Shown: piece by piece, positions 37,348 to 64,000 of the stretch | Numbering within the stretch: the stretch's first letter is position 1 | How the letters are laid out: every line of letters starts with the position of its first letter | Origin: Astropecten irregularis | Taxonomy: Eukaryota; Echinodermata; Asteroidea; Paxillosida; Astropectinidae | Assembly (NCBI GenBank): GCA_963971285.1 | Contig: OZ020247.1 | Span: forward strand, 13,660,614 to 13,724,613 | DNA length: 64,000 bases | Direction: 5' to 3' | Made by a program: the position numbers and the translations under genes | The notes under the pieces: generated by a model | What the model was told of the DNA's origin: nothing | What the model saw: only the letters and a program-made list of their open reading frames with translations | Databases searched by the model: none

Positions 37348-37479
37348 CATCGCAGTCACGCAACCAGTCACTCTCCTGAGGACGAACACAGCACACTGTT
37401 CGGAACGTCGAGATAATACCAACGGTTCTTCTCAGAACCACACACTCTCACAGAAGAGATTACATGGTGTCACCGCGGG

Positions 37480-37592
37480 CACCGGACAAGTCGACCGCGG
37501 GACAACTCGACTCGAGACAACTCGACCGCAAAGACAACTCGACTCCGAGACAGCTCAACTCCAAAGACAACTCGATTCCGAGACAACTCGAC
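37480..37592. repeat. Degenerate tandem repeat GACAACTCGAC...
   Basis: Units of roughly 16-17 bp built on AGACAACTCGACTCCG, repeated about six times with variants (CGACCGCG, CAACTCCA). Next to a decayed stretch with no clear gene. Confidence 0.7.
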
Positions 37593-37684
37593 TTCATGTA
37601 TGCAATGCTCGGCTGGTGTGCGCGAAAATCAGTTCCAACGTTTTTTATTATATTAACGTGATTTCATCCCCAGGAGTATATTAA

Positions 37685-38360: not shown

Positions 38361-39660
38361 CTCCGGCCGGTGTACTTCAAACTAGCCAGCTGCAGCGTGC
38401 CCGCTAAGCTCATCTTGGCCGTCGGCCACGGCAAGCAGGTCGACTTCAGGTTCAAAAATTCAGATCTATGATCTACACTGAAAATAAAAAGACACGTGTA
38501 ATTTTGTTTTTCATGAGTTTGACCCAGAAATGAGCAGGCAGATTTCAAAGATCGTGTTCAAAATATAGGATTGGACAGCGCGTTTTCATATATAATGCAC
38601 ATACAGTGTAGCACGTCATAACGTGATTTGTAAAACATTGCAGATTTCGCTAAGCAGGGCGACTTCAGGTTCAAAAATTCAGATATATGATCTACACTGA
38701 AAATAAAAAGACACGTGTAATTTTGTTTTACCTGAATTTTCCCAAGAAATGAGCAGGCAGTTTTCAAAGATCGTGTTCAAAATATAGGATTAGACTGCGT
38801 GCTGCCATATATAATACACATACAGTGTAAACCGGTATTGCATGATTTGTAAAACATTGCAGATTTCGTTAAGCAGGGCGACTTCAGGTTCAAAAATTCA
38901 GATATATGATCTACACGGAAAATAAAAAGACACGTGTAATTTTGTTTTTCCCGAATTTGACCCAGAAATGAGCAGGCAGATTTCAAAGATGTTCAAAATA
39001 TAGGATTGGACAGCGCGCTGTCATATATAATACACATACAGTGTAGCACGTCATAACGTGATTTGTAAAACATTGCAGATTTCGCTAAGCAGGTCGACTT
39101 CAGGTTAAAAAACTCAGATATATGATCTACACTGAAAATAAAAAGACACGTGTAATTTTATTTTTCCTGAGTTTGACCCAGAAATGAGCAGGCAGATTTC
39201 AAAGATGTTCAAAATATAGGATTGGACAGCGCGCTGTCATATATAATACACATACAGTGTAGCACGTCATAACGTGATTTGTAAAACATTGCAGATTTCG
39301 CTAAGCAGGTCGACTTCAGGTTAAAAAACTCAGATATATGATCTACACTGAAAATAAAAAGACACGTGTAATTTTGTTTTTCCTAAATTTTCCAAAGAAA
39401 TGAGCAGGCAGTTTTCAAAGATCGTGTTCAAAATATAGGATTAGACTGCGTGCTGCCATATATAATACACATACAGTGTAAACCGGTATTGCATGTTTTG
39501 TAAAACATTGCAGATTTCGCTATACAGGGCGACTTCAGGGTCAAAAATTCAGATCTATGATCTAGACTGAAAATAAAAAGACACGTGTAATTTTGTTTTT
39601 CCTGAGTTTGCCCCAGAAATGAGCAGCCAGATGTCAAAGATCGTGTTCAAAATATAGGAT

Positions 39661-39945
39661 TTGAAAAATCGTCATGCGCTTTAACAATGGTCCCATGCAC
39701 AAACCTATGCACGAAGGTGTGAACTAGACCGAATCTTACTGACTATGACAAATATAATCCAGGACCATTTCATGTCACAACTCATTTTTGTCCACGCAGG
39801 CTCTACGGGCTTGCCTATAAGCGTGGCATGAGCCAGTCGTCTGGCATAGTCAGTGACATATGGTCAAGCTCCCCGCCTTCGTAATATAGTTTGTACATGG
39901 GCTCATTGCTAAAGCGCGTTAGGATTTTTTTTTAGGGGGAGGATT
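39661..39945. mobile_element. Foldback transposon embedded in a satellite monomer; 14 copies through the array
   Basis: The block replaces the middle of a monomer between TAGGATT and TTTCGCTACGCAGGGC. Copies start near 39663, 41844, 44037, 45344, 49070, 50820, 52782, 54089, 56048, 57789, 59097, 60622, 61926 and 62794. The ends AAAAATCCTCATGCGCTTTA and TAAAGCGCGTTAGGATTTTT are inverted with three mismatches in 20. Pairing continues inward through CAATGGTCCCATGCACAAAC against GTTTGTACATGGGCTCATTG, and CTTACTGACTATG against CATAGTCAGTGAC, giving arms of about 95 bp. The inner loop has its own stem, CCACGC/GCGTGG. No protein is encoded. The end sequence is best preserved in the copy at 41844. Confidence 0.8.
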
Positions 39946-42900
39946 TCGCTACGCAGGGCGACTTCAGTTTCAAAAATTCAGATCTATGATCTACACTGAA
40001 AATAAAAAGACAAGTGTAATTTTGTTTTTCCTGAGTTTGCCCCAGAAATGAGCAGGCAGATTCCAAAGATCGTGTTCAAAATATAGGATTAGACTGCGTG
40101 CTGCCATATATAATACACATACAGTGTAAACCGGTATTGCATGATTTGTAAAACATTGCAGATTTCGTTAAGCAGGGCGACTTCAGGTTCAAAAATTCAG
40201 ATATATGATCTACACGGAAAATAAAAAGACACGTGTAATTTTGTTTTTCCCGAGTTTGACCCAGAAATGAGCAGGCAGATTTCAAAGATCGTGTTCAAAA
40301 TATAGGATTGGACAGCGCGCTGTCATATATAATACACATACAGTGTAGCACGTCATAACGTGATTTGTAAAACATTGCAGATTTCGCTAAGCAGGGCGAC
40401 TTCAGGTTCAAAAATCCAGATCTATGATCTACACTGAAAATAAAAAGACAAGTTTAATTTTGTTTTTCCTGAGTTTGCCCCAGAAATGAGCAGGCAGATT
40501 CCAAAGATCGTGTTCAAAATATAGGATTTGACCGCGCGCTGCCATATATATATATAATACACATACAGTGTAGAACGTCATAACATGATATATACATCAT
40601 TACAGATTTCGCTAAGCAGGGCAACTTCAGGTTCAAAAATTCAGATCTATAATCTTGACTGAAAATAAAAAGACACGTGTAATTTTGTTTTTCCTGAGTT
40701 TGACCCAGAAATGAGCAGGCAGATTTCAAAGATCGTGTTCAAAATATAGGATTGGACAGCGCGTTGTCATATATAATACACATACAGTGTAGCACGTCAT
40801 AACGTGATTTGTAAAACATTGCAGATTTCGCTAAGCAGGGCGACATCAGGTTCAAAAATTCAGATGTATGATCTACACTGAAAATAAAAAGACACGTGTA
40901 ATTTTGTTTTACCTGAATTTTCCCAAGAAATGAGCAGGCAGTTTTCAAAGATCGTGTTCAAAATATAGGATTAGACTGCGTGCTGCCATATATAATACAC
41001 ATACAGTGTAAACCGGTATTGCATGATTTGTAAAACATTGCAGATTTCGTTAAGCAGGGCGACTTCAGGTTCAAAAATTCAGATATATGATCTTCACGGA
41101 AAATAAAAAGACACGTGTAATTTTGTTTTTCCCGAGTTTGACCCAGAAATGAGCAGGCAGATTTCAAAGATGTTCAAAATATAGGATTGGACAGCGCGCT
41201 GTCATATATAATACACATACAGTGTAGCACGTCATAACGTGATTTGTAAAACATTGCAGATTTCGCTAAGCAGGTCGACTTCAGGTTAAAAAACTCAAAT
41301 ATATGATCTACACTGAAAATAAAAAGACACCTGTAATTTTGTTTTTCCTGAGTTTGACCCAGAAATGAGCAGGCAGATTTCTTAGATCGTGTTCAAAATA
41401 TAGGATTGGACAGCGCGCTGTCATATATAATACACATACAGTGTAGCACGTCATAACGTGATTTGTAAAACATTGCATATTTCGCTAAGCAGGGTGACTT
41501 CAGGTTCAAAAATTCAGATGTATGATCTACACTGAAAATAAAAAGACACGTGTAATTTTGTTTTTCCTGAGTTTGACCCAGAAATGAGCAGGCAGATTTC
41601 AAAGATCGTGTTCAAAATATAGGATTAGACTGCGTGCTGCCATATATAATACACATACAGTGTAAACCGGTAATGCATGTTCTGTAAAACATTGCAGATT
41701 TCGCTATGCAGGGCGACTTCAGGGTCAAAAATTTAGATCTATGATCTAGACTGAAAATAAAAAGACACGTGTAATTTTGTTTTTCCTGAGTTTGCCCCAG
41801 AAATGAGGAGCCAGATGTCAAAGATCGTGTTCAAAATATAGGATTTGAAAAATCCTCATGCGCTTTAACAATGGTCCCATGCACAAACCTATGCACGAAG
41901 GTGTGAACTAGACCGAATCTTACTGACTATGACAAACATAATCCAGGACCATTTCATGTCACAACTCATTTTTGTCCACGCAGGCTCTACGGGCTTGGCT
42001 ATAAGCGTGGCATGAGCCAGTCGTCTGGCATAGTCAGTGACATATGGTCAAGCTCCCCGCCTTCGTAATATGGTTTGTACATGGGCTCATTGCTAAAGCG
42101 CGTTAGGATTTTTGTTTTAGGGGGAGGATTTCGCTACGCAGGGCGACTTCAGATTCAAAAATTCAGATCTATGATCTACACTGAAAATAAAAAGACAAGT
42201 GTAATTTTGTTTTTACTGAGTTTGCCCCAGAAATGAGCAGGCAGATTCCAAAAATCGTGTTCAAAATATAGGATTTGACCGCGCGCTGCCATATAAATAT
42301 ATAATACACATACAGTGTAGAACGTCATAACGTGATATATACATCATTACAGATTTCGCTAAGCAGGGCAACATCAGGTTCAAAAATTCAGATCTATAAT
42401 CTTGTCTGAAAATAAAAAGACACGTGTAATTTTGTTTTTCCTGAGTTTGACCCAGAAATGAGCAGGCAGATTTCAAAGATCGTGTTCAAAATATAGGATT
42501 GGACAGCGCGTTGTCATATATAATACACATACAGTGTAGCACGTCATAACGTGATTTGTAAAACATTGCAGATTTCGCAAAGCAGGGCGACTTCAGTTTC
42601 AAAAATTCAGATGTATGATCTACACTGAAAATAAAAAGACACGTGTAATTTTGTTTTACCTGAATTTTCCCAAGAAATGAGCAGGCAGTTTTCAAAGATC
42701 GTGTTCAAAATATAGGATTAGACTGCGTGCTGCCATATATAATACACATACAGTGTAGCACGTCATAACGTGATTTATAAAACATTGCATATTTCGCTAA
42801 GCAGGGCGACTTCAGGTTCAAAAATTCAGATGTATGATCTACACTGAAAATAAAAAGACACGTGTAATTTTGTTTTACCTGAATTTTCCCCAGAAATGAG

Positions 42901-43365
42901 CAGGCAGTTTTCAAAGATCGTGTTCAAAATATAGGATTAGACTGCGTGCTGCCATATATAATACACATACAGTGTAAACCGATATTGCATGTTTTGTAAA
43001 ACATTGCTGATTTCGCTAAGCAGGGCGACTTCAGGTTCAAAAATTCAGATCTATGATCTACACTGAAAATAAAAAGACACGTGTAATTTTGTTTTTCCTG
43101 AGTTTGACCCAGAAAATGAGCAGGCAGATTTCAAAGATCGCGTTCAAAATATAGGATTCGACAGCGCGCTGTTATATTATGATACACATACAGTGTAGAA
43201 CGTCATAATATAATATATAAATCATTACAGATTTCGCTATGCAGGGTGACTTCAGGTTCAAAAATTCAGATATATGATCTACACTGAAAATAAAAAGACA
43301 CGTGTAATTTTGTTTTTCCTGAGTTTGACCCAGAAATGAGCAGGCAGATTTCCAAGATCGTGTTC

Positions 43366-45979
43366 AAAATATAGGATTGGACAGCGCGCTGTCATATATA
43401 ATACACGTACAGTGTAGCACGTCATAACGTGATTTGTAAAAAAATTGCATATTTCGCTAAGCAGGGCGACTTCAGGTTCAAAAATTCAGATGTATGATCT
43501 ACACTGAAAATAAAAAGACACGTGTAATTTTGTTTAACCTGAATTTTCCCCAGAAATGAGCAGGCAGTTTTCAAAGATCGTGTTCAAAATATAGGATTGG
43601 ACAGCGCGCTGTCATATATAATACACATACAGTGTAGCACGTCATAACGTGATATGTAAAACATTACAGATTTCGCTATGCAGGGCGACTTCAGGGTCAA
43701 AAATTCAGATATATGATCTACACTGAAAATAAAAAGACACGTGTAATTTTGTTTTTCCTGAGTTTGACCCAGAAATGAGCAGGCAGATTTCAAAGATCGT
43801 GTTCAAAATATAGGATTGGACAGCGCGCTGTTATATTATGATACACATACAGTGTAGCACGTCATAACATGATATATAAATCATTACAGATTTCGCTATG
43901 CAGGGCGACTTCAGGGTCAAAAATTCAGATCTATGATCTACACTAAAAATAAAAATACACGTGTAATTTTGTTTTTCCTGAGTTTGACCCCGAAATGAGC
44001 AGCCAGATGTCAAAGATCGCGTTTAAAATATAGGATTTGAAAAATCCTCATGCGCTTTAACAATGGTCCCATGCACAAACCTATGCACGAAGGTGTGAAC
44101 TAGACCGAATCTTACTGACTATGAACAACATAATCCAGGACCATTTCATGTCACAACTCATTTTTGTCCACGCAGGCTCTACGGGCTTGCCTATAAGCGT
44201 GGCATGAGCCAGTCGTCTGGCATAGTCAGTGATTATGGTCAAGCTCCCCGCCTTCGTAATATGGTTTGTACATGGGCTCATTGCTAAAGCGCGTTAGGAT
44301 TGGTATTTTAGAGGAGGGTTTCGCTACGCAGGGCTGTTTCAGTTTAAAAAATTCAGATCTATGATCTACACTGAAAATAAAAAGACACGTGTAATTTTGT
44401 TTTACCTGAATTTTCCCCAGAAATGAGCAGGTAGTTTTCAAAGATCGTGTTCAAAATATAGGATTAGACTGCGTGCTGCCATATATAATACACATACAGT
44501 GTAAACCGGTATTGCATGTTTTGTTAAACATTGCAGATTTTGCTAAGCAGGGCGACTTCAGGTTCAAAAATTCAGATCTATGATCTACACTGAAAATAAA
44601 AAGACACGTGTAATTTTGTTTTTCCTGAGTTTGACCCAGAAAATGAGCAGGCAGATTTCAAAGATCGTGTTCAAAATATAGGATTGGACAGCGCGCTGTC
44701 ATATATAATACACGTACAGTGTAGCACGTCATAACGTGATTTGTAAAAAAATTGCATATTTCGCTAAGCAGGGCGACTTCAGGTTCAAAAATTCAGATGT
44801 ATGATCTACACTGAAAATAAAAAGACACGTGTAATTTTGTTTAACCTGAATTTTCCCCAGAAATGAGCAGGCAGTTTTCAAAGATCGTGTTCAAAATATA
44901 GGATTGGACAGCGCGCTGTCATATATAATACACATACAGTGTAGCACGTCATAACGTGATATGTAAAACATTACAGATTTCGCTATGCAGGGCGACTTCA
45001 GGGTCAAAAATTCAGATATATGATCTACACTGAAAATAAAAAGACACGTGTAATTTTGTTTTTCCTGAGTTTGACCCAGAAATGAGCAGGCAGATTTCAA
45101 AGATCGTGTTCAAAATATAGGATTGGACAGCGCGCTGTTATATTATGATACACATACAGTGTAGCACGTCATAACATGATATATAAATCATTACAGATTT
45201 CGCTATGCAGGGCGACTTCAGGGTCAAAAATTCAGATCTATGATCTACACTAAAAATAAAAATACACGTGTAATTTTGTTTTTCCTGAGTTTGACCCCGA
45301 AATGAGCAGCCAGATGTCAAAGATCGCGTTTAAAATATAGGATTTGAAAAATCCTCATGCGCTTTAACAATGGTCCCATGCACAAACCTATGCACGAAGG
45401 TGTGAACTAGACCGAATCTTACTGACTATGAACAACATAATCCAGGACCATTTCATGTCACAACTCATTTTTGTCCACGCAGGCTCTACGGGCTTGCCTA
45501 TAAGCGTGGCATGAGCCAGTCGTCTGGCATAGTCAGTGATTATGGTCAAGCTCCCCGCCTTCGTAATATGGTTTGTACATGGGCTCATTGCTAAAGCGCG
45601 TTAGGATTGGTATTTTAGAGGAGGGTTTCGCTACGCAGGGCTGTTTCAGTTTAAAAAATTCAGATCTATGATCTACACTGAAAATAAAAAGACACGTGTA
45701 ATTTTGTTTTACCTGAATTTTCCCCAGAAATGAGCAGGTAGTTTTCAAAGATCGTGTTCAAAATATAGGATTAGACTGCGTGCTGCCATATATAATACAC
45801 ATACAGTGTAAACCGGTATTGCATGTTTTGTTAAACATTGCAGATTTTGCTAAGCAGGGCGACTTCAGGTTCAAAAATTCAGATCTATGATCTACACTGA
45901 AAATAAAAAGACACGTGTAATTTTGTTTTTCCTGAGTTTGACCCAGAAAATGAGCAGGCAGATTTCAAAGATCGTGTTC
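43366..45979. repeat. 1307-bp higher-order unit, two nearly identical copies
   Basis: Copy 1 is about 43366-44672, copy 2 about 44673-45979. Shared private variants include ATACACGTACAGTG, TTTGTAAAAAAATTGC and GACTATGAACAACATAATCC. Each has one foldback block. The two run without visible difference until they diverge at GGATTGGAC versus GGATTCGAC. Confidence 0.9.
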
Positions 45980-48900
45980 AAAATATAGGATTCGACAGCG
46001 CGCTGTTATATTATGATACACATACAGTGTAGAACGTCATAACATGATATATAAATCATTACAGATTTCGCTCTGCAGGGCGACTTCAGGTTCAAAAATT
46101 CAGATATATGATCTACACTGAAAATAAAAAGACACGTGTAATTTTGTTTTTACTGAGTTTGACCCAGAAATGAGCAGGCAGATTTCAAAGATCGTGTTCA
46201 AAATATAGGATTGGACAGCGCGCTGTCATATATAATACACATACAGTGTAGCACGTCATAACGTGATTTGTAAAACATTGCATATTTCGCTAAGCAGGGC
46301 GACTTCAGGTTCAAAAATTCAGATGTATGATCTACACTGAAAATAAAAAGACACGTGTAATTTTGTTTTACCTGAATTTTCCCCAGAAATGAGCAGGCAG
46401 TTTTCAAAGATCGTGTTCAAAATATAGGATTAGACTGCGTGCTGCCATATATAATACACATACAGTGTAAACCTGCATTGCATGTTTTGTAAAACATTGC
46501 AGATTTCGCTAAGCAGGGCGACTTCAGGTTCAAAAATTCGGATCTATGATCTACACTGAAAATAAAAAGACACGTGTAATTTTGTTTTTCCTGAGTTTGA
46601 CCCAGAAAATGAGCAGGCAGATTGCAAAGATCGTGTTCAAAATATAGGATTGGACAGCGCGCTGTTATATTATGATACACATACATTGTAGCACGTCATA
46701 ACGTGATTTGTAAAACATTGCATATTTCGCTAAGCAGGGCGACTTCAGGTTCAAAAATTCAGATGTATGATCTACACTGAAAATAAAAAGACACGTGTAA
46801 TTTTGTTTTACCTGAATTTTCCAAAGAAATGAGCAGGCAGTTTTCAAAGATCGTGTTCAAAATATAGGATTAGACTGCGTGCTGCCATATATAATACACA
46901 TACAGTGTAAACCTGCATTGCATGTTTTGTAAAACATTGCAGATTTCGCTAAGCAGGGCGACTTCAGGTTCAAAAATTCGGATCTATGATCTACACTGAA
47001 AATAAAAAGACACGTGTAATTTTGTTTTTCCTGAGTTTGACCCAGAAAATGAGCAGGCAGATTTCAAAGATCGTGTTCAAAATATAGGATTGGACAGCGC
47101 GCTGTTATATTATGATACACATACAGTGTAGAACGTCATAACATGATATATAAATCATTACAGATTTCGCTATGCAGGGCGACTTCAGGGTCAAAAATTC
47201 AGATATATGATCTACACTGAAAATAAAAAGACACGTGTAATTTTGTTTTTCCTGAGTTTGACCCAGAAATGAGCAGGCAGATTTCAAAGATCGTGTTCAA
47301 AATATAGGATTGGACAGCGCGCTGTTATATTATGATACACATACAGTGTAGCACGTCATAACATGATATATAAATCATTACAGATTTCGCTATGCAGGGC
47401 GACTTCAGGGTCAAAAATTCAGATCTATGATCTACACTAAAAATAAAAATACACGTGTAATTTTGTTTTTCCTGAGTTTGACCCAGAAATGAGCAGCCAG
47501 ATGTCAAAGATCGTGTTCAAAATATAGGATTCGACAGCGCGCTGTTATATTATGATACACATACAGTGTAGAACGTCATAACATGATATATAAATCATTA
47601 CAGATTTCGCTCTGCAGGGCGACTTCAGGTTCAAAAATTCAGATATATGATCTACACTGAAAATAAAAAGACACGTGTAATTTTGTTTTTACTGAGTTTG
47701 ACCCAGAAATGAGCAGGCAGATTTCAAAGATCGTGTTCAAAATATAGGATTGGACAGCGCGCTGTCATATATAATACACATACAGTGTAGCACGTCATAA
47801 CGTGATTTGTAAAACATTGCATATTTCGCTAAGCAGGGCGACTTCAGGTTCAAAAATTCAGATGTATGATCTACACTGAAAATAAAAAGACACGTGTAAT
47901 TTTGTTTTACCTGAATTTTCCCCAGAAATGAGCAGGCAGTTTTCAAAGATCGTGTTCAAAATATAGGATTAGACTGCGTGCTGCCATATATAATACACAT
48001 ACAGTGTAAACCTGCATTGCATGTTTTGTAAAACATTGCAGATTTCGCTAAGCAGGGCGACTTCAGGTTCAAAAATTCGGATCTATGATCTACACTGAAA
48101 ATAAAAAGACACGTGTAATTTTGTTTTTCCTGAGTTTGACCCAGAAAATGAGCAGGCAGATTTCAAAGATCGTGTTCAAAATATAGGATTGGACAGCGCG
48201 CTGTTATATTATGATACACATACATTGTAGCACGTCATAACGTGATTTGTAAAACATTGCATATTTCGCTAAGCAGGGCGACTTCAGGTTCAAAAATTCA
48301 GATGTATGATCTACACTGAAAATAAAAAGACACGTGTAATTTTGTTTTACCTGAATTTTCCAAAGAAATGAGCAGGCAGTTTTCAAAGATCGTGTTCAAA
48401 ATATAGGATTAGACTGCGTGCTGCCATATATAATACACATACAGTGTAGAACGTCATAACATGATATATAAATCATTACAGATTTCGCTATGCAGGGCGA
48501 CTTCAGGGTCAAAAATTCAGATATATGATCTACACTGAAAATAAAAAGACACGTGTAATTTTGTTTTTCCTGAGTTTGACCCAGAAAATGAGCAGGCAGA
48601 TTTCAAAGATCGTGTTCAAAATATAGGATTGGACAGCGCGCTGTTATATTATGATACACATACAGTGTAGAACGTCATAACATGATATATAAATCATTAC
48701 AGATTTCGCTATGCAGGGCGACTTCAGGGTCAAAAATTCAGATATATGATCTACACTGAAAATAAAAAGACACGTGTAATTTTGTTTTTCCTGAGTTTGA
48801 CCCAGAAATGAGCAGGCAGATTTCAAAGATCGTGTTCAAAATATAGGATTGGACAGCGCGCTGTTATATTATGATACACATACAGTGTAGCACGTCATAA

Positions 48901-49057
48901 CATGATATATAAATCATTACAGATTTCGCTATGCAGGGCGACTTCAGGGTCAAAAATTCAGATCTATGATCTACACTAAAAATAAAAATACACGTGTAAT
49001 TTTGTTTTTCCTGAGTTTGACCCAGAAATGAGCAGCCAGATGTCAAAGATCGCGTTT
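45980..49057. repeat. 1539-bp higher-order unit, two copies, no foldback block in the first
   Basis: About 45980-47518 and 47519-49057. Shared private variants: TTCGCTCTGCAGGGC, AAACCTGCATTGCATG, AATTCGGATCTATG and ACATACATTGTAGCAC. Small differences near 46900 versus 48440, where the class of one monomer changes, point to exchange between copies. Confidence 0.8.
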
Positions 49058-49069
49058 AAAATATAGGAT

Positions 49070-52000
49070 TTGAAAAATCCTCATGCGCTTTAACAATGGT
49101 CCCATGCACAAACCTATGCACGAAGGTGTGAACTAGACAGAATCTTACTAACTATGACCAACATAATCCAGGACCATTTCATGTCACAACTCATTTTTGT
49201 CCACGCAGGCTCTACGGGCTTGCCTATAAGCGTGGCATGAGCCAGTCGTCTGGCATAGTCAGTGACATATGGTCAAGCTCCCCGCCTTCGTAATATGGTT
49301 TGTACATGGGCTCATTGCTAAAGCGCGTTAGGATTGGTATTTTAGAGGAGGGTTTCGCTACGCAGGGCTGTTTCAGTTTAAAAAATTCAGATCTATGATC
49401 TACACTGAAAATAAAAAGACACGTGTAATTTTGTTTTACCTGAATTTTCCCCAGAAATGAGCAGGCAGTTTTCAAAGATCGTGTTCAAAATATAGGATTA
49501 GACTGCGTGCTGCCATATATAATACACATACAGTGTAAACCGGTATTGCATGTTTTGTTAAACATTGCAGATTTTGCTAAGCAGGGCGACTTCAGGTTCA
49601 AAAATTCAGATCTATGATCTACACTGAAAATAAAAAGACACGTGTAATTTTGTTTTTCCTGAGTTTGACCCAGAAAATGAGCAGGCAGATTTCAAAGATC
49701 GTGTTCAAAATATAGGGATTGGACAGCGCGCTGTTATATTATGATACACATACAGTGTAGAACGTCATAACATGATATATAAATCATTACAGATTTCGCT
49801 ATGCAGGGCGACTTCAGGTTCAAAAATTCAGATCTATGATCTACACTGAAAATAAAAAGACACGTGTAATTTTGTTTTTCCTGAGTTTGACCCAGAAAAT
49901 GAGCAGGCAGATTTCAAAGATCGTGTTCAAAATATAGGATTGGACAGCGCGCTGTCATATATAATACACATACAGTGTAGCACGTCATAACGTGATTTGT
50001 AAAACATTGCATATTTCGCTAAGCAGGGCGACTTCAGGTTCAAAAATTCAGATGTATGATCTACACTGAAAATAAAAAGACACGTGTAATTTTGTTTTAC
50101 CTGAATTTTCCCCAGAAATGAGCAGGCAGTTTTCAAAGATCGTGTTCAAAATATAGGATTAGACTGCGTGCTGCCATATATAATACACATACAGTGTAAA
50201 CCTGCATTGCATGTTTTGTAAAACATTGCAGATTTCGCTAAGCAGGGCGACTTCAGGTTCAAAAATTCAGATCTATGATCTACACTGAAAATAAAAAGAC
50301 ACGTGTAATTTTGTTTTTCCTGAGTTTGACCCAGAAAATGAGCAGGCAGATTTCAAAGATCGTGTTCAAAATATAGGATTGGACAGCGCGCTGTTATATT
50401 ATGATACACATACAGTGTAGAACGTCATAACGTGATATATAAATCATTACAGATTTCGCTATGCAGGGCGACTTCAGGGTCAAAAATTCAGATATAAGAT
50501 CTACACTGAAAATAAAAAGACACGTGTAATTTTGTTTTTCCTGAGTTTGACCCAGAAATGAGCAGGCAGATTTCAAAGATCGTGTTCAAAATATAGGATT
50601 GGACAGCGCGCTGTTATATTATGATACACATACAGTGTAGCACGTCATAACATGATATATAAATCATTATAGATTTCGCTATGCAGGGCGTCTTCAGGGT
50701 CAAAAATTCAGATCTATGATCCACACTAAAAATAAAAATACACGTGTAATTTTGTTTTTCCTGAGTTTGACCCAGAAATGAGCAGCCAGATGTCAAAGAT
50801 CGCGTTTAAAATATAGGATTTGAAAAATCCTCATGCGCTTTAACAATGGTCCCATGCACAAACCTATGCACGAAGGTGTGAACTAGACAGAATCTTACTA
50901 ACTATGACCAACATAATCCAGGACCATTTCATGTCACAACTCATTTTTGTCCACGCAGGCTCTACGGGCTTGCCTATAAGCGTGGCATGAGCCAGTCGTC
51001 TGGCATAGTCAGTGACATATGGTCAAGCTCCCCACCTTCGTAATATGGTTTGTACATGGGCTCATTGCTAAAGCGCGTTAGGATTGGTATTTTAGAGGAG
51101 GGTTTCGCTACGCAGGGCTGTTTCAGTTTAAAAAATTCAGATCTATGATCTACACTGAAAATAAAAAGACACGTGTAATTTTGTTTTACCTGAATTTCCC
51201 CCAGAAATGAGCAGGCAGTTTTCAAAGATCGTGTTCAAAATATAGGATTAGACTGCGTGCTGCCATATATAATACACATACAGTGTAAACCGGTATTGCA
51301 TCTTTTGTTAAAAATTGCAGATTTTGCTAAGCAGGGCGATTTCAGGTTCAAAAATTCAGATCTATGATCTACACTGAAAATAAAAAGAGACGTGTAATTT
51401 TGTTTTTCCTGAGTTTGACCCAGAAAATGAGCAGGCAGATTTCAAAGATCGTGTTCAAAATATAGGATTCGACAGCGCGCTGTTATATTATGATACACAT
51501 ACAGTGTAGAACGTCATAACATGATATATAAATCATTACAGATTTCGCTATGCAGGGCGACTTCAGGTTCAAAAATTCAGATCTATGATCTACACTGAAA
51601 ATAAAAAGACACGTGTAATTTTGTTTTTCCTGAGTTTGACCCAGAAAATGAGCAGGCAGATTTCAAAGATCGTGTTCAAAATATAGGATTGGACAGCGCG
51701 CTGTCATATATAATACACATACAGTGTAGCACGTCATAACGTGATTTGTAAAACATTGCATATTTCGCTAAGCAGGGCGACTTCAGGTTCAAAAATTCAG
51801 ATGTATGATCTACACTGAAAATAAAAAGACACGTGTAATTTTGTTTTACCTGAATTTTCCCCAGAAATGAGCAGGCAGTTTTCAAAGATCGTGTTCAAAA
51901 TATAGGATTAGACTGCGTGCTGCCATATATAATACACATACAGTGTAAACCTGCATTGCATGTTTTGTAAAACATTGCAGATTTCGCTAAGCAGGGCGAC

Positions 52001-52569
52001 TTCAGGTTCAAAAATTCAGATCTATGATCTACACTGAAAATAAAAAGACAGGTGTAATTTTGTTTTTCCTGAGTTTGACCCAGAAATGAGCAGGCAGATT
52101 TCAAAGATCGTGTTCAAAATATAGGATTGGACCGCGCGCTGTCATATTTAATACACATACAGTGTAGCACGTCATAACGTGATTTGTAAAACATTGCATA
52201 TTTCGCTAAGCAGGGCGACTTCAGGTTCAAAAATTCAGATGTATGATCTACACTGAAAATAAAAAGACACATGTAATTTTGTTTTACCTGAATTTCCCCC
52301 AGAAATGAGCAGGCAGTTTTCAAAGATCGTGTTCAAAATATAGGATTAGACTTCGTGCTGCCATATATAATACACATACAGTGTAAACCGGTATTGAATG
52401 TTTTGTAAAACATTGCAGATTTTGCTAAGCAGGGCGACTTCAGGTTCAAAAATTCAGATCTATGATCTACACAATAAAAAGACACGTGTAATTTTGTTTT
52501 TCCTGAGTTTGACCCAGAAATGAGCAGGCAGATTTCAAAGATCGTGTTCAAAATATAGGATTGGACAGC
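49070..52569. repeat. 1750-bp higher-order unit, two copies
   Basis: About 49070-50819 and 50820-52569, each starting with a foldback block that carries the variant GACAGAATCTTACTAACTAT. Copy 2 differs by scattered substitutions (for example CCCCACCTTCG, GACGTGTAATTTTG preceded by AAAGA) and in its last monomers, which include a deletion giving ATCTACACAATAAAAAGAC. Confidence 0.75.
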
Positions 52570-55159
52570 GCGCTGTTATATTATGATACACATACAGTGT
52601 AGCACGTCATAACATTATATATAAATCATTACAGATTTCGCTATGCAGGGCGACTTCAGGGTCAAAAATTCAGATCTATGATCTACACTAAAAATAAAAA
52701 TACACGTGTAATTTTGTTTTTCCTGAGTTTGACCCAGAAATGAGCAGCCACATGTCAAAGATCGTGTTTAAAATATAGGATTTGAAAAATCCTCATGCGC
52801 TTTAACAATGGTCCCATGCACAAACCTATGCACGAAGGTGTGAACTAGACCGAATCTTACTGACTATGACCAACATAATCCAGGACCATTTCATGTCACA
52901 ACTCATTTTTGTCCACGCAGGCTCTACGGGCTTGCCTATAAGCGTGGCATGAGCCAGTCGTCTGGCATAGTCAGTGACATATGGTCAAGCTCCCCGCCTT
53001 CGTAATATGGTTTGTACATGGGCTCATTGCTAAAGCGCGTTAGGGTTGGTATTTTAGGGGAGGGTTTCGCTACGCAGGGCTGTTTCAGTTTTAAAAATTC
53101 AGATCTATGATCTACACTGAAAATAAAAATACATGTGTAATTTTGTTTTTCCTGAGTTTGACCCAGAAATGAGCAGGCAGATTTCAAAGATCGTGTTCAA
53201 AATATAGGATTGGACAGCGCGCTGTCATATATAATACACATACAGTGTAGCACGTCATAACGTGATTTGTAAAACATTGCATATTTCGCTAAGCAGGGCG
53301 ACTTCAGGTTCAAAAATTCAGATGTATGATCTACACTGAAAAAAAAAGACACGTGTAATTTTGTTTTACCTGAATTTTCCCCAGAAATGAGCAGGCAGTT
53401 TTCAAAGATCGTGTTCAAAATATAGGATTAGACTGCGTGCTGCCATATATAATACACATACAGTGTAAACCGGTATTGCATGTTTTGTAAAACATTGCAG
53501 ATTTTGCTAAGCAGGGCGACTTCAGGTTCAAAAATTCAGATCTATGATCTACACTGAAAATAAAAAGACACGTGTAATTTTGTTTTTCCTGAGTGTGACC
53601 CAGAAAATGAGCAGGCAGATTTCAAAGATCGTGTTCAAAATATAGGATTGGACAGCGCGCGGTTATATTATGATACACATACAGTGTAGCACGTCATAAC
53701 ATGATATATAAATCATTACAGATTTCGCTATGCAGGGCGACTTCAGGGTCAAAAATTCAGATATATGATCTACACTGAAAATAAAAAGACACGTGTAATT
53801 TTGTTTTTCCTGAGTTTGACCCAGAAATGAGCAGGCAGATTTCAAAGATCGTGTTCAAAATATAGGATTGGACAGCGCGCTGTTATATTATGATACACAT
53901 ACAGTGTAGCACGTCATAACATGATATATAAATCATTACAGATTTCGCTATGCAGGGCGACTTCAGGGTCAAAAATTCAGATCTATGATCTACACTAAAA
54001 ATAAAAATACACGTGTAATTTTGTTTTTCCTGAGTTTGACCCAGAAATGAGCAGCCAGATGTCAAAGATCGCGTTTAAAATATAGGATTTGAAAAATCCT
54101 CATGCGCTTTAACAATGGTCCCATGCACAAACCTATGCACGAAGGTGTGAACTAGACAGAATCTTACTAACTATGACCAACATAATCCAGGACCATTTCA
54201 TGTCACAACTCATTTTTGTCCACGCAGGCTCTACGGGCTTGCCTATAAGCGTGGCATGAGCCAGTCGTCTGGCATAGTCAGTGACATATGGTCAAGCTCC
54301 CCGCCTTCGTAATATGGTTTGTACATGGGCTCATTGCTAAAGCGCGTTAGGATTGGTATTTTAGAGGAGGGTTTCGCTACGCAGGGCTGTTTCAGTTTAA
54401 AAAATTCAGATCTATGATCTACACTGAAAATAAAAAGACACGTGTAATTTTGTTTTACCTGAATTTTCCCCAGAAATGAGCCGGCAGTTTTCAAAGATCG
54501 TGTTCAAAATATAGGATTGGACAGCGCGCTGTCATATATAATACACTTACAGTGTAGCACGTCATAACGTGATTTGTAAAACATTGCATATTTCGCTAAG
54601 CAGGGCGACTTCAGGTTCAAAAATTCAGATGTATGATCTACACTGAAAATAAAAAGACACGTGTAATTTTGTTTTACCTGAATTTTCCCCAGAAATGAGC
54701 AGGCAGATTTCAAAGATCGTGTTCAAAATATAGGATTGGACAGCGCGCTGTCATATATAATACACATACAGTGTAGCACGTCATAACGTGATTTGTAAAA
54801 CATTGCATATTTCGCTAAGCAGGGCGACTTCAGGTTCAAAAATTCAGATGTATGATCTACACTGAAAATAAAAGACACGTGTAATTTTGTTTTACCTGAA
54901 TTTTCCCCAGAAATGAGCAGGCAGTTTTCAAAGATCGTGTTCAAAATATAGGATTAGACTGCGTGCTGCCATATATAATACACATACAGTGTAAACCTGC
55001 ATTGCATGTTTTGTAAAACATTGCAGATTTCGCTAAGCAGGGCGACTTCAGGTTCAAAAATTCAGATCTATGATCTACACTGAAAATAAAAAGACAGGTG
55101 TAATTTTGTTTTTCCTGAGTTTGACCCAGAAATGAGCAGGCAGATTTCAAAGATCGTGT

Positions 55160-58100
55160 TCAAAATATAGGATTGGACCGCGCGCTGTCATATTTAATAC
55201 ACATACAGTGTAGCACGTCATAACGTGATTTGTAAAACATTGCATATTTCGCTAAGCAGGGCGACTTCAGGTTCAAAAATTCAGATGTATGATCTACACT
55301 GAAAATAAAAAGACACATGTAATTTTGTTTTACCTGAATTTCCCCCAGAAATGAGCAGGCAGTTTTCAAAGATCGTGTTCAAAATATAGGATTAGACTGC
55401 GTGCTGCCATATATAATACACATACAGTGTAAACCGGTATTGAATGTTTTGTAAAACATTGCAGATTTTGCTAAGCAGGGCGACTTCAGGTTCAAAAATT
55501 CAGATCTATGATCTACACAATAAAAAGGCACGTGTTATTTTGTTTTTCCTGAGTTTGACCCAGAAATGAGCAGGCAGATTTCAAAGATCGTGTTCAAAAT
55601 ATAGGATTGGACAGCGCGCTGTTATATTATGATACACATACAGTGTAGCACGTCATAACATGATATATAAATCATTACAGATTTCGCTATGCAGGGCGAC
55701 TTCAGGGTCAAAAATTCAGATATATGATCTACACTGAAAATAAAAAGACACGTGTAATTTTGTTTTTCCTGAGTTTGACCCAGAAATGAGCAGGCAGATT
55801 TCAAAGATCGTGTTCAAAATATAGGATTGGACAGCGCGCTGTTATATTATGATACACATACAGTGTAGCACGTCATAACATTATATATAAATCATTACAG
55901 ATTTCGCTATGCAGGGCGACTTCAGGGTCAAAAATTCAGATCTATGATCTACACTAAAAATAAAAATACACGTGTAATTTTGTTTTTCCTGAGATTGACC
56001 CAGAAATGAGCAGCCAGATGTCAAAGATCGTGTTTAAAATATAGGATTTGAAAAATCCTCATGCGCTTTAACAATGGTCCCATGCACAAACCTATGCACG
56101 AAGGTGTGAACTAGACTGAATCTTACTGACTATGACCAACATAATCCAGGACCATTTCATGTCACAACTCATTTTTGTCCACGCAGGCTCTACGGGCTTG
56201 CCTATAAGCGTGGCATGAGCCAGTCGTCTGGCATAGTCAGTGACATATGGTCAAGCTCCCCGCCTTCGTAATATGGTTTGTACATGGGCTCATTGCTAAA
56301 GCGCGTTAGGATTGGTATTTTAGGGGAGGGTTTCGCTACGCAGGGCTGTTTCAGTTTAAAAAATTCAGATCTATGATCTACACTGAAAATAAAAATACAC
56401 GTGTAATTTTGTTTTTCCTGAGTTTGACCCAGAAATGAGCAGGCAGATTTCAAAGATCGTGTTCAAAATATAGGATTGGACAGCGCGCTGTCATATATAA
56501 TACACATACAGTGTAGCACGTCATAACGTGATTTGTAAAACATTGCATATTTCGCTAAGCAGGGCGACTTCAGGTTCAAAAATTCAGATGTATGATCTAC
56601 ACTGAAAATAAAAAGACACGTGTAATTTTGTTTTACCTGAATTTTCCCCAGAAATGAGCAGGCAGTTTTCAAAGATCGTGTTCAAAATATAGGATTAGAC
56701 TGCGTGCTGCCATATATAATACACATACAGTGTAAACCTGCATTGCATGTTTTGTAAAACATTGCAGATTTCGCTAAGCAGGGCGACTTCAGGTTCAAAA
56801 ATTCAGATCTATGATCTACACTGAAAATAAAAAGACAGGTGTAATTTTGTTTTTCCTGAGTTTGACCCAGAAATGAGCAGGCAGATTTCAAAGATCGTGT
56901 TCAAAATATAGGATTGGACCGCGCGCTGTCATATTTAATACACATACAGTGTAGCACGTCATAACGTGATTTGTAAAACATTGCATATTTCGCTAAGCAG
57001 GGCGACTTCAGGTTCAAAAATTCAGATGTATGATCTACACTGAAAATAAAAAGACACATGTAATTTTGTTTTACCTGAATTTCCCCCAGAAATGAGCAGG
57101 CAGTTTTCAAAGATCGTGTTCAAAATATAGGATTAGACTGCGTGCTGCCATATATAATACACATACAGTGTAAACCGGTATTGAATGTTTTGTAAAACAT
57201 TGCAGATTTTGCTAAGCAGGGCGACTTCAGGTTCAAAAATTCAGATCTATGATCTACACAATAAAAAGACACGTGTAATTTTGTTTTTCCTGAGTTTGAC
57301 CCAGAAATGAGCAGGCAGATTTCAAAGATCGTGTTCAAAATATAGGATTGGACAGCGCGCTGTTATATTATGATACACATACAGTGTAGCACGTCATAAC
57401 ATGATATATAAATCATTACAGATTTCGCTATGCAGGGCGACTTCAGGGTCAAAAATTCAGATATATGATCTACACTGAAAATAAAAAGACACGTGTAATT
57501 TTGTTTTTCCTGAGTTTGACCCAGAAATGAGCAGGCAGATTTCAAAGATCGTGTTCAAAATATAGGATTGGACAGCGCGCTGTTATATTATGATACACAT
57601 ACAGTGTAGCACGTCATAACATTATATATAAATCATTACAGATTTCGCTATGCAGGGCGACTTCAGGGTCAAAAATTCAGATCTATGATCTACACTAAAA
57701 ATAAAAATACACGTGTAATTTTGTTTTTCCTGAGTTTGACCCAGAAATGAGCAGCCAGATGTCAAAGATCGTGTTTAAAATATAGGATTTGAAAAATCCT
57801 CATGCGCTTTAACAATGGTCCCATGCACAAACCTATGCACGAAGGTGTGAACTAGACCGAATCTTACTGACTATGACCAACATAATCCAGGACCATTTCA
57901 TGTCACAACTCATTTTTGTCCACGCAGGCTCTACGGGCTTGCCTATAAGCGTGGCATGAGCCAGTCGTCTGGCATAGTCAGTGACATATGGTCAAGCTCC
58001 CCGCCTTCGTAATATGGTTTGTACATGGGCTCATTGCTAAAGCGCGTTAGGATTGGTATTTTAGGGGAGGGTTTCGCTACGCAGGGCTGTTTCAGTTTAA

Positions 58101-58480
58101 AAAATTCAGATCTATGATCTACACTGAAAATAAAAATACACGTGTAATTTTGTTTTTCCTGAGTTTGACCCAGAAATGAGCAGGCAGATTTCAAAGATCG
58201 TGTTCAAAATATAGGATTGGACAGCGCGCTGTCATATATAATACACATACAGTGTAGCACGTCATAACGTGATTTGTAAAACATTGCATATTTCGCTAAG
58301 CAGGGCGACTTCAGGTTCAAAAATTCAGATGTATGATCTACACTGAAAATAAAAAGACACGTGTAATTTTGTTTTACCTGAATTTTCCCCAGAAATGAGC
58401 AGGCAGTTTTCAAAGATCGTGTTCAAAATATAGGATTAGACTGCGTGCTGCCATATATAATACACATACAGTGTAAACCG
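55160..58480. repeat. 1741-bp higher-order unit, two copies
   Basis: The pattern starting near 55160 recurs 1741 bp later from 56901, sharing CATATTTAATACACATACAG, AAGACACATGTAATTTTG, ATTGAATGTTTTGTAAAAC and ATCTACACAATAAAAAG. One foldback block per unit (56048 and 57789). Confidence 0.8.
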
Positions 58481-61400
58481 GTATTGCATGTTTTGTAAAA
58501 CATTGCAGATTTTGCTAAGCAGGGCGACCTTCAGGTTCAAAAATTCAGATCTATGATCTACACTGAAAATAAAAAGACACGTGTAATTTTGTTTTTCCTG
58601 AGTTTGACCCAGAAATGAGCAGGCAGATTTCAAAGATCGTGTTCAAAATATAGGATTGGACAGCGCGCTGTTATATTATGATACACATACAGTGTAGCAC
58701 GTCATAACATGATATATAAATCATTACAGATTTCGCTATGCAGGGCGACTTCAGGGTCAAAAATTCAGATATATGATCTACACTGAAAATAAAAAGACAC
58801 GTGTAATTTTGTTTTTCCTGAGTTTGACCCAGAAATGAGCAGGCAGATTTCAAAGATCGTGTTCAAAATATAGGATTGGACAGCGCGCTGTTATATTATG
58901 ATACACATACAGTGTAGCACGTCATAACATGATATATAAATCATTACAGATTTCGCTATGCAGGGCGACTTCAGGGTCAAAAATTCAGATCTATGATCTA
59001 CACTAAAAATAAAAATACACGTGTAATTTTGTTTTTCCTGAGTTTGACCCAGAAATGAGCAGCCAGATGTCAAAGATCGCGTTTAAAATATAGGATTTGA
59101 AAAATCCTCATGCGCTTTAACAATGGTCCCATGCACAAACCTATGCACGAAGGTGTGAACTAGACCGAATCTTACTGACTATGACCAACATAATCCAGGA
59201 CCATTTCATGTCACAACTCATTTTTGTCCACGCAGGCTCTACGGGCTTGCCTTTAAGCGTGGCATGAGCCAGTCGTCTGGCATAGTCAGTGACATATGGT
59301 CAAGCTCCCCGCCTTCGTAATATGGTTTGTACATGGGCTCATTGCTAAAGCGCGTTAGGATTGGTATTTTAGAGGAGGGTTTCGCTACGCAGGGCTGTTT
59401 CAGTTTAAAAAATTCAGATCTATGATCTACACTGAAAATAAAAAGACACGTGTAATTTTGTTTTTCCTGAGTTTGACCCAGAAAATGAGCAGGCAGATTT
59501 CAAAGATCGTGTTCAAAATATAGGATTGGACAGCGCGCTGTCATATATAATACACATACAGTGTAGCACGTCATAACGTGATTTGTAAAACATTGCATAT
59601 TTCGCTAAGAAGGGCGACTTCAGGTTCAAAAATTCAGATGTATGATCTACACTGAAAATAAAAAGACACGTGTAATTTTGTTTTACCTGAATTTTCCCCA
59701 GAAATGAGCAGGCAGTTTTCAAAGATCGTGTTCAAAATATAGGATTAGACTGCGTGCTGCCATATATAATACACATACAGTGTAAACCGGTATTGAATGT
59801 TTTGTTAAACATTGCAGATTTTGCTAAGCAGGGCGACTTCAGGTTCAAAAATTCAGATCTGTGATCTACACTGAAAATAAAAAGACACGTGTAATTTTGT
59901 TTTTCCTGAGTTTGACCCAGAAATGAGCAGGCAGATTTCAAAGATCGTGTTCAAAATATAGGATTGGACAGCGCGCTGTTATATTATGATACACATACAG
60001 TGTAGCACGTCATAACATGATATATAAATCATTACAGATTTCGCTAAGCAGGGCGACTTCAGGGTCAAAAATTCAGATCTATGATCTACACTAAAAATAA
60101 AAATACACGTGTAATTTTGTTTTTCCTAAGTTTGACCCAGAAATGAGCAGGCATATTTCAAAGATCATGTTCAAAATATAGCATTGGACAGCGCGCTGTC
60201 ATATATAATACACAAACAGTGTAGCACGTCATAACGTGATTTGTAAAACATTGCAGATTTCGCTAAGCAGGGCGACTTCAGGTTCAAAATTTAGATGTAT
60301 GATCTGCACTGAAAATAAAAAGACACGTGTAATTTTGTTTTACCTGAATTTTCCCAAGAAATGAGCAGGCAGTTTTCAAAGATCGTGTTCAAAATATAGG
60401 ATTAGACTGCGTGCTGCCATATATAATACACATACAGTGTAAACCGGTATTGCATGTTTTGTAAAACATTGCATATTTCGCTATGCAGGGCGACTTCAGG
60501 GTCAAAAATTCCGATCTATGATCTAGACTGAAAATAAAAAGACACGTGTAATTTTGTTTTTCCTGAATTTGCCCCAGAAATGAGCAGCCAGATGTCAAAG
60601 ATCGTGTTCAAAATATAGGATTTGAAAAATCCTCATGCGCTTTAACAATGGTCCCATGCACAAACCTATGCACGAAGGTGTGAACTAGACCGAATGTTAC
60701 TGACTATGACAAACATAATCCAGGACCATTTCATGTCACAACTCATTTTTGTCCACGCAGGCTCTACGGGCTTGCCTATAAGCGTGGCATGAGCCAGTCG
60801 TCTGGCATAGTCAGTGACATATGGTCAAGCTCCCCGCCTTCGTAATATGGTTTGTACATGGGCTCATTGCTAAAGCGCGTTAGGATTGGTATTTTAGAGG
60901 AGGGTTTCGCTACGCAGGGCTGTTTCAGTTTAAAAAATTCAGATCTATGATCTACACTGAAAATAAAAAGACACGTGTAATTTTGTTTTTCCTGAGTTTG
61001 ACCCAGAAAATGAGCAGGCAGATTTCAAAGATCGTGTTCAAAATATAGGATTGGACAGCGCGCTGTCATATATAATACACATACAGTGTAGCACGTCATA
61101 ACGTGATTTGTAAAACATTGCATATTTCGCTAAGCAGGGCGACTTCAGGTTCAAAAATTCAGATGTATGATCTACACTGAAAATAAAAAGACACGTGTAA
61201 TTTTGTTTTACCTGAATTTTCGCCAGAAATGAGCAGGCAGTTTTCAAAGATCGTGTTCAAAATATAGGATTAGACTGCGTGCTGCCATATATAATACACA
61301 TACAGTGTAAACCGGTATTGCATGTTTTGTTAAACATTGCAGATTTTGCTAAGCAAGGCGACTTCAGGTTCAAAAATTCAGATCTATGATCTACACTGAA

Positions 61401-61692
61401 AATAAAAAGACACGTGTAATTTTGTTTTTCCTGAGTTTGACCCAGAAATGAGCAGGCAGATTTCAAAGATCGTGTTCAAAATATAGGATTGGACAGCGCG
61501 CTGTATCATAATACACATACAGTGTAGCACGTCATAACGTGATTTGTAAAACATTGCATATTTCGCTAAGCAGGGCGACTTCAGGTTCAAAAATTCAGAT
61601 GTATGATCTACACTGAAAATAAAAAGACACGTGTAATTTTGTTTTACCTGAATTTTCCCCAGAAATGAGCAGGCAGTTTTCAAAGATCGTGT

Positions 61693-63428
61693 TCAAAATA
61701 TAGGATTAGACTGCGTGCTGCCATATATAATACACATACAGTGTAAACCGGTATTGCATGTTTTGTAAAACATTGCAGATTTCGCTATGCAGGGCGACTT
61801 CAGGGTCAAAAATTCAGATCTATGATCTAGACTGAAAATAAAAAGACACGTGTAATTTTGTTTTTCCTGAATTTGCCCCAGAAATGAGCAGCCAGATGTC
61901 AAAGATCGTGTTCAAAATATAGGATTTGAAAAATCCTCATGCGCTTTAACAATGGTCCCATGCACAAACCTATGCACGAAGGTGTGAACTAGACCGAATC
62001 TTACTGACTATGACAAACATAATCCAGGACCATTTCATGTCACAACTCATTTTTGTCCACGCAGGCTCTACGGGCTTGCCTATAAGCGTGGCATGAGCCA
62101 GTCGTCTGGCATAGTCAGTGACATATGGTCAAGCTCCCCGCCTTCGTAATATGGTTTGTACATGGGCTCATTGCTAAAGCGCGTTAGGATTGGTATTTTA
62201 GAGGAGGGTTTCGCTACGCAGGGCTGTTTCAGTTTAAAAAATTTAGATCTATGATCTACACTGAAAATAAAAAGACACGTGTAATTTTGTTTTACCTGAA
62301 TTTTCCCCAGAAATGAGCAGGCAGTTTTCAAAGATCGTGTTCAAAATATAGGATTGGACAGCGCGCTGTTATATTATGATACACATACAGTGTAGCACGT
62401 CATAACGTGATTTGTAAAACATTGCATATTTCGCTAAGCAGGGCGACTTCAGGTTCAAAAATTCAGATGTATGATCTACACTGAAAATAAAAAGACACGT
62501 GTAATTTTGTTTTACCTGAATTTTCCCCAGAAATGAGCAGGCAGTTTTCAAAGATCGTGTTCAAAATATAGGATTAGACTGCGTGCTGCCATATATAATA
62601 CACATACAGTGTAAACCAGTATTGCATGTTTTGTAAAACATTGCAGATTTCGCTATGCAGGGCGACTTCAGGGTCAAAAATTCAGATCTATGATCTAGAC
62701 TGAAAATAAAAAGACACGTGTAATTTTGTTTTTCCTGAATTTGCCCCAGAAATGAGCAGCCAGATGTCAAAGATCGTGTTCAAAATATAGGATTTGAAAA
62801 ATCCTCATGCGCTTTAACAATGGTCCCATGCACAAACCTATGCACGAAGGTGTGAACTAGACCGAATCTTACTGACTATGACAAACATAATCCAGGACCA
62901 TTTCATGTCACAACTCATTTTTGTCCACGCAGGCTCTACGGGCTTGCCTATAAGCGTGGCATGAGCCAGTCGTCTGGCATAGTCAGTGACATATGGTCAA
63001 GCTCCCCGCCTTCGTAATATGGTTTGTACATGGGCTCATTGCTAAAGCGCGTTAGGATTGGTATTTTAGAGGAGGGTTTCGCTACGCAGGGCTGTTTCAG
63101 TTTAAAAAATTCAGATCTATGATCTACACTGAAAATAAAAAGACACGTGTAATTTTGTTTTACCTGAATTTTCCCCAGAAATGAGCAGGCAGTTTTCAAA
63201 GATCGTGTTCAAAATATAGGATTGGACAGCGCGCTGTTATATTATGATACACATACAGTGTAGCACGTCATAACATGATATATATATCATTACAGATTTC
63301 GCTAAGCAAGGCGACTTCAGGTTCAAAAATTCAGATGTATGATCTACACTGAAAATAAAAAGACACGTGTAATTTTGTTTTACCTGAATTTTCCCCAGAA
63401 ATGAGCAGGCAGTTTTCAAAGATCGTGT
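61693..63428. repeat. 868-bp higher-order unit, two copies
   Basis: Shortest unit: foldback blocks at 61926 and 62794 are 868 bp apart and neighbouring monomers match one to one (ATCTATGATCTAGACTG, TCCTGAATTTGCCCCAG in both). It corresponds to four monomers including one enlarged by the foldback. Confidence 0.85.
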
Positions 63429-64000
63429 TCAAAATATAGGATTAGACTGCGTGCTGCCATATATAATACACATACAGTGTAAACCGGTATTGCATGTTTT
63501 GTAAAACATTGCAGATTTTGCTAAGCAGGGCGACTTCAGGTTCAAAAATTCAGATCTATGATCTACACTGAAAATAAAAAGACACGTGTAATTTTGTTTT
63601 TCCTGAGTGTGACCAAGAAAATGAGCAGGCAGATTTCAAAGATCGTGTTCAAAATATAGGATTGGACAGCGCGCTGTTATATTATGATACACATACAGTG
63701 TAGCACGTCATAACATGATATATAAATCATTACAGATTTCGCTAAGCAGGGCGACTTCAGGGTCAAAAATTCAGATATATGATCTACACTGAAAATAAAA
63801 AGACACGTGTAATTTTGTTTTTCCTGAGTTTGACCCAGAAATGAGCAGGCAGATTTCAAAGATCGTTTTCAAAATATAGGATTGGACAGCGCGCTGTCAT
63901 ATATAATACACATACAGTGTAGCACGTCATAACGTGATTTGTAAAACATTGCATATTTCGCTAAGCGGGGCGACTTCAGGTTCAAAAATTCAGATGTATG

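What the first reader, a model, noticed from the sequence alone, without database searches (positions are those of the whole stretch)
38433..64000. A transposon-seeded higher-order satellite: one foldback element copied 14 times by array expansion
All 14 foldback blocks sit at the same point of the monomer, between the same flanking words, and share private variants with their neighbouring monomers. This means one insertion followed by amplification, not 14 insertions. Block spacing (868, 1304-1308, 1525, 1741, 1750, 1959, 1962, 2181, 2193, 3525-class and 3726 bp) is close to multiples of 219 bp. The element thus marks the higher-order register and adds a strong hairpin at regular intervals to a satellite of centromeric-type monomer length.
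Basis: partly seen in the sequence, partly recalled or inferred. Interest (0 to 1): 0.75.

Follow-up and report, generated by a model that had tools for sequence, protein, structure and literature searches.

The report
Hairpin insert hitchhiking in satellite arrays
A 279-base hairpin-forming piece of DNA landed once in a 219-base tandem repeat of what looks like an echinoderm genome and was then copied passively with the repeat to several chromosomes; it is a good natural marker of how satellite DNA spreads, but nothing shows that it organises the array or does anything.

Summary
From 38433 the window is a ~219-bp satellite with 14 copies of a 278-280 bp hairpin block, all at one point of the monomer. 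The block takes the place of the monomer's ~72-bp tail. The array runs on to ~C10:13.827 Mb (128 kb, 70 blocks in 517 units). One origin is well supported: block-bearing cores share private variants across arrays and chromosomes (99 of 100 vs 23 of 679 at one site), and 113 of 114 scorable blocks keep the same 5' junction (C9, C10, C15; the exception, on C12, lost its left end). Genome-wide there are 1,621 block centres and 40,242 monomer cores, so most units carry no block. 'Transposon-seeded' and 'marks the higher-order register at regular intervals' are not supported: spacing is 2-16 units, linkage falls to near background within about one to two monomers, C9 and C12 have blocks of other lengths, and pairing shows no sign of selection. 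Inverted arms and a 7-bp direct repeat fit a transposon insertion, but no solo copy was found. A centromeric role is untested. New: arrays on five contigs share one right flank. The host is probably an echinoderm.

The parts
38433..64000 (+). part of a 128-kb satellite array; ~219-bp unit made of a ~147-bp core and a ~72-bp tail of three related types; continues beyond the window
37470..38432 (+). broken copy of a dispersed TIR element ('TE-L') that abuts the array; cut at CCACGGC and joined to a core start
39662..39940 (+). hairpin block 1 (keeps AGGATTT at both ends)
41846..42125 (+). hairpin block 2 (keeps AGGATTT at both ends; folded, and used as query)
44038..44315 (+). hairpin block 3
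45345..45622 (+). hairpin block 4
49071..49349 (+). hairpin block 5
50821..51099 (+). hairpin block 6
52783..53061 (+). hairpin block 7
54090..54368 (+). hairpin block 8
56049..56327 (+). hairpin block 9
57790..58068 (+). hairpin block 10
59098..59376 (+). hairpin block 11
60623..60901 (+). hairpin block 12
61927..62205 (+). hairpin block 13
62795..63073 (+). hairpin block 14

Best explanation
A pre-existing ~219-bp satellite received one short foldback element, probably a non-autonomous DNA transposon, at the AGGATT(T) site that closes the monomer core. The 72-bp tail was lost at that time or soon after, probably by recombination between the GATT words on both sides of the tail. The block then spread passively: unequal exchange copied it along the array, and movement of array segments between chromosomes carried it to C9, C10, C12 and C15. 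Gene conversion and exchange have pared linkage down to about one to two monomers around the block, and deletions at short matches have trimmed one end of the element in some lineages. Shown: single junction, private variants, irregular spacing, decay of linkage, shortened forms. Inferred: that the element was a transposon, how the tail was lost, which form came first, and how segments moved between chromosomes. The hairpin is read as a passenger.
For: Same 5' junction in 113 of 114 scorable blocks (110 by a fuzzy rule; 3 more, printed, show the same junction with two changed bases or a 4-bp insertion inside the arm; 1 is the C12 copy that lost its left end; one further block was cut by the end of a fetched stretch). 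Private sites in block-bearing cores: C 99 of 100 vs 23 of 679, G 97 of 100 vs 7 of 679; in the next core C 89 of 100 vs 0 of 579. By mean distance, 99% of block-bearing cores are closer to block-bearing cores of other arrays than to plain cores of their own array. Frequency difference from other cores: 0.093 in the last quarter of the block-bearing core, 0.152 in the first quarter of the next core, 0.025 at the far end of that core; random sets average 0.013-0.019. Blocks differ by 0.008-0.031 within and among C10 arrays, 0.000-0.052 within and among C9 arrays, and up to 0.063 between contigs. AGGATTT at both ends in 15 of 113. Shortened forms on C9 and C12. Pairing not conserved: 17 of 81 substitution types at paired sites keep the pair vs 15.7 expected, 0.40 vs 0.42 types per paired and unpaired site, no two-sided change.
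Against: No solo copy was found, so transposition is unproven; the search ranked array copies first (40 of 2,304 candidates scored). The planned genome-wide count of the 5' junction did not complete. Left-end matches (728 at up to 3 mismatches) are fewer than centre matches (1,621 at up to 2), so many blocks elsewhere have other left ends, of which I have read one (C12). The downstream cores as a group are more diverse than random sets (0.083 vs 0.072; between arrays 0.118), because some of their private variants occur in only about 62-64 of 100. Cores two to three units away still differ slightly more than random in the first quarter (0.036-0.047 vs a random maximum of 0.026). The 5' end lacks the CCCCCTA run that the 3' end would predict, so the termini are imperfect.
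Confidence: 0.78

Rival explanations
1. The block marks and maintains a higher-order repeat: its unit is about two monomers long, so phase is kept, and the hairpin helps to organise the array.
For: Full block units are 428-434 bp against 2 x 219 = 438. A local run of 8-unit repeats carries one block each.
Against: Spacing is 2-16 units. C9 forms at 14.4-14.8 Mb keep the tail and give units of about 450 bp, and the C12 copy is shortened. No selection on pairing was seen. A length within 10 bp of a multiple of 219 has about a 9% chance by luck (own arithmetic).
Confidence: 0.07
2. The block is not a transposon but a captured foldback fragment, filled in when a break at the palindromic tail was repaired; the tail edges are fragile.
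For: By my reading, six of nine joins to foreign or non-homologous sequence lie at a tail edge: block 5' and 3', the C9 block truncation, the satellite left ends on C12:9.87 and C10:19.9 (5' edge), and the C10a left end a few bases past the 3' edge. One main tail type begins with a 14-bp perfect palindrome, GACAGCGCGCTGTC (22 exact copies in the window array).
Against: The idea was formed after seeing the joins. Three of nine lie inside the core: the common right end, the C12 block deletion and the left end of the C9 array at 14.56 Mb. Inverted arms plus a 7-bp direct repeat are explained more simply by transposition.
Confidence: 0.15
3. Several independent insertions of the same element at a preferred target in the monomer.
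For: Transposons with a target preference could hit the same word in many monomers (general knowledge).
Against: Private variants outside the target, up to one core away, are shared among arrays and contigs. The right end without a tail recurs on C10, C12 and C15, and by length also in C9 arrays 17.8 and 18.2.
Confidence: 0.03

Closest known systems
Tetris foldback element and TIR-220 satellite of Drosophila virilis (PMC4079207; abstract and outline seen)
   Same: A foldback element and a ~220-bp tandem repeat are physically linked.
   Different: There the satellite monomer comes from the element's own inverted repeats. Here block and monomer show no similarity beyond short chance-level matches, and the block is read as a late addition.
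Oyster Cg_HINE Helentrons with satellite-like central repeats (PMC7492417; abstract and outline seen)
   Same: Tandem repeats at many places share a common flanking sequence, as the arrays here share a right flank.
   Different: Arrays here reach at least 128 kb, left ends differ, and no Helentron ends were shown.
Inserted sequences in bovine 1.711/1.709 satellites (recalled; the listing held no paper on it)
   Same: A foreign segment inserted in a satellite unit and amplified with it.
   Different: From memory only; insert type and spacing differ.
Composite satellites that include transposon remnants (PMC12628747; passages seen)
   Same: A satellite unit made of repeat plus transposon-like piece.
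   Different: Here the composite unit is a minority variant inside a plain satellite.

Membership tests
Foldback / MITE-like DNA transposon | long inverted terminal arms | tested here: met
   271-nt hairpin, z -10.9; 101 pairs in the fold of the consensus
Foldback / MITE-like DNA transposon | target-site duplication | tested here: inconclusive
   AGGATTT at both ends in 15 of 113 blocks scored; the site is not an ordinary full monomer because the tail is missing
Foldback / MITE-like DNA transposon | dispersed copies at unrelated sites | tested here: inconclusive
   of the 40 scored hits, 35 lie in array stretches that I fetched and 5 (C10:16.306-16.316 Mb) were not read; the one centre hit on C9 that looked isolated lies in an array; diverged solo copies could not be ranked
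Higher-order repeat satellite | regular multimeric unit repeated over the array | tested here: not met
   8-unit run only locally; elsewhere the best lag varies between 5 and 25 units
Centromeric satellite | present on all chromosomes | tested here: inconclusive
   the 100 exact places listed in each are all on C9; if places are listed in contig order, C1-C8 hold no exact match, but the order is my assumption and later places were not listed
Centromeric satellite | CENP-A occupancy | not testable with these tools
   needs ChIP or CUT&RUN
Centromeric satellite | CENP-B-box-like motif (not universal; motif recalled) | tested here: not met
   0 matches on either strand in 38433-64000
Tetris-type satellite | monomer derived from the element's arm | tested here: not met
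   no block-core or block-tail similarity beyond short matches with E-values of 1 or more
Helentron/HINE-carried array | defined element termini on both sides of the array | tested here: inconclusive
   satellite to the left of the common right flank in 9 of 9 copies examined, left ends differ; outer terminus not reached

The most novel reading that the evidence does not exclude
The satellite is the inner part of a large dispersing unit with a fixed right end and ragged left ends: arrays on at least five contigs end in degenerate monomers and the same unique sequence. The hairpin block is a molecular tracer that records which arrays descend from which, and the tail edges are the break points used when arrays are trimmed or joined to new DNA.
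Probability: 0.15. Interest if true: 0.6.

Novelty: new member of a known kind. Interest (0 to 1): 0.36.

Why it matters
A single insertion that now occurs about 1,600 times inside a satellite of some 40,000 monomers is a natural tracer. It lets one measure, within one genome, how fast unequal exchange and gene conversion break linkage in a satellite and how arrays move between chromosomes. The common right flank makes a unit-dispersal model directly testable. I saw no paper on echinoderm satellite DNA: one search found one paper (on fish), and none of the 15 papers listed of 1,134 held the words 'satellite DNA'; the library holds open-licence papers only.

Tried and rejected
Amphioxus as host: guessed from genome size, dropped when the mitochondrial COX1 proved to read best under the echinoderm/flatworm code. 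It is open under tables 5, 9, 13 and 14; table 9 gives the residues I expect, and 'echinoderm' also rests on recalled gene order and genome size. Selection on the hairpin: no sign. The sharp end of the shared right flank at CTAG, at first taken for an element terminus: it is the end of a MITE, and the flank goes on in C10:17.8, C10:20.0 and C12. Isolated block at C9:14,556,673 as a solo copy: it lies in an array. Rfam at gathering thresholds: only a histone 3' stem-loop outside the array. The 3' label is unreliable: its fuzzy word also matches the next core, so 7 C9 copies that searches show to be shortened were counted as full; the figure of 113 'full' blocks includes them. One search failed for a bad anchor and was redone; the first unit search merged units and was redone. 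Literature: 10 of 10 searches used (listings seen); four papers opened (abstract and outline; 115: passages; 116: term search without hits).

Full report
Where it is. The window is C10:13,660,614-13,724,613 of a 475.7-Mb genome in 168 contigs; C10 is 28.06 Mb long.

What the sequence shows. From 38433 to the end of the window lies a tandem repeat of ~219 bp. The 104 core starts found show units made of a well-kept core of ~147 bp and a tail of ~72 bp in three related types. In 14 units the tail is absent and a block of 278-280 bp stands in its place. The block folds into one long hairpin. The next 130 kb, fetched, show that the array ends at about C10:13.827 Mb: 128 kb, 517 units, 70 with a block.

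One origin. In the stretches read of six further arrays on C9 and C10 the block begins at the same place, giving 100 blocks in 779 units with the window's array. With more loci on C9, C10, C12 and C15, 113 of 114 scorable blocks share the 5' junction; the exception, on C12, has lost its left end but keeps the 3' junction. Copies at C9:14.4-14.8 Mb lack the two bases TG at that junction. Cores that carry a block share two near-private variants (99 of 100 vs 23 of 679; 97 of 100 vs 7 of 679), and the next core downstream carries others (89 of 100 vs 0 of 579 for the best). These variants link arrays on different contigs. The frequency difference from other cores is highest next to the block and falls to 0.025 by the far end of the downstream core (random average 0.013); cores two or three units away stay slightly above random in places. 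As a group the downstream cores are more diverse than random sets (0.083 vs 0.072), because part of their variants is array-specific. The junction is therefore read as an old, single haplotype that exchange has pared down to about one to two monomers.

Kind of insert. Fifteen of 113 blocks, among them the first two of the window, keep AGGATTT at both ends. The arms are inverted but imperfect, while copies differ by only ~3%, so the arms were probably already diverged when the block was amplified. This fits a decayed foldback or MITE-like transposon. The missing tail lies between two GATT words, so loss by recombination between them is likely. No solo copy was found, but array copies fill the ranking (40 of 2,304 candidates scored, 35 of these in arrays that I fetched, 5 not read), so the test is weak.

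Not a register. Blocks are 2 to 16 units apart in the C10 array; only one stretch has a clean 8-unit repeat. At C9:14.4-14.8 Mb, 7 of 7 block copies whose flanks I printed keep a full tail after a shortened block, so units there are about 450 bp; an eighth (L022) also matches only to block position 239. In the C12 copy a deletion took the left end of the block and part of the core. Substitution types neither avoid paired sites nor keep pairs more than expected. So neither spacing nor structure looks maintained.

Scale. The block centre has 1,621 matches in the genome (up to 2 mismatches, control 0) and the core 40,242 (up to 3 mismatches, control 0). At 219 bp each this is close to 9 Mb. The ratio is about 4%, against 14 blocks for 104 core starts in the window, so most units carry no block, block density elsewhere is lower on average, and the block did not seed the satellite. 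The 100 exact places listed in each are all on C9; if lists run in contig order, C1-C8 have no exact match, which would speak against a role at every centromere, but the order is an assumption. The arrays that I read lie at about 43-72% of the length of their contigs (C9, C10, C12, C15, C19), so a pericentromeric place is possible.

Shared flanks. The sequence right of the window's array recurs on C9, C10, C12, C15, C19 and C22. In 9 of 9 copies examined (C10 four times, C12 twice, C9, C15, C19) the satellite lies to its left, its last cores less well matched than the rest; further copies on C12, C15 and C22 were not read. Its last ~470 bp in this locus is a dispersed MITE with ~55-bp inverted ends. 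Left ends differ: the window's array abuts a broken copy of a dispersed TIR element (37470-38432); on C12:9.87 Mb satellite sequence (only ~245 bp read) abuts a second copy of the same element at a different point; the array at C10:19.9 abuts other sequence; and the C9 array at 14.56 Mb starts with degenerate monomers. Arrays thus have one common right end and several left ends. A dispersing unit or old duplications of array plus flank would both explain this.

Verdict. The finding is real and its core claim, one insertion and many copies, holds well beyond the window. Its claims of seeding, of register and of regular spacing do not. It is a composite satellite variant of a known kind, useful as a tracer.

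Noticed in passing
L011:2700-4397 and copies on C9, C10, C12, C15, C19, C22: Arrays on several contigs share one right flank; its last ~470 bp here is a dispersed MITE with ~55-bp inverted ends.
   Followed up: partly
window 37470-38432; L029-L035: Dispersed element with inverted ends made of GGAGTCGAGTTGTC-like repeats; two copies (C10, C12) abut satellite sequence at different break points.
   Followed up: partly
window 37419-37463: Histone 3' UTR stem-loop above Rfam's gathering score, directly before the TIR element; no histone gene was looked for.
   Followed up: no
window 33789-35048 (-): 419-codon frame with a proline-rich start and a kinase-like end; five proteins (source ENA, unnamed) match at 54-57% identity and carry kinase Pfam domains.
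   Followed up: partly
   Followed up: no
window 23611-24047: GACCT pentamer array with a 119-bp superstructure.
   Followed up: no
G000:C131:32162-33484 and C25:9951047-9952018: COX1 with an open 552-aa frame under the standard code on C131 (possible bacterial contaminant or symbiont), and a COX1 fragment with 7 TGA on C25, perhaps a nuclear mitochondrial copy.
   Followed up: no
L018, L058, L059, L060 (C9:14.4-14.8 Mb) and L023 (C12): Shortened blocks joined to monomer sequence at short matches; the C9 form is followed by a normal tail.
   Followed up: partly
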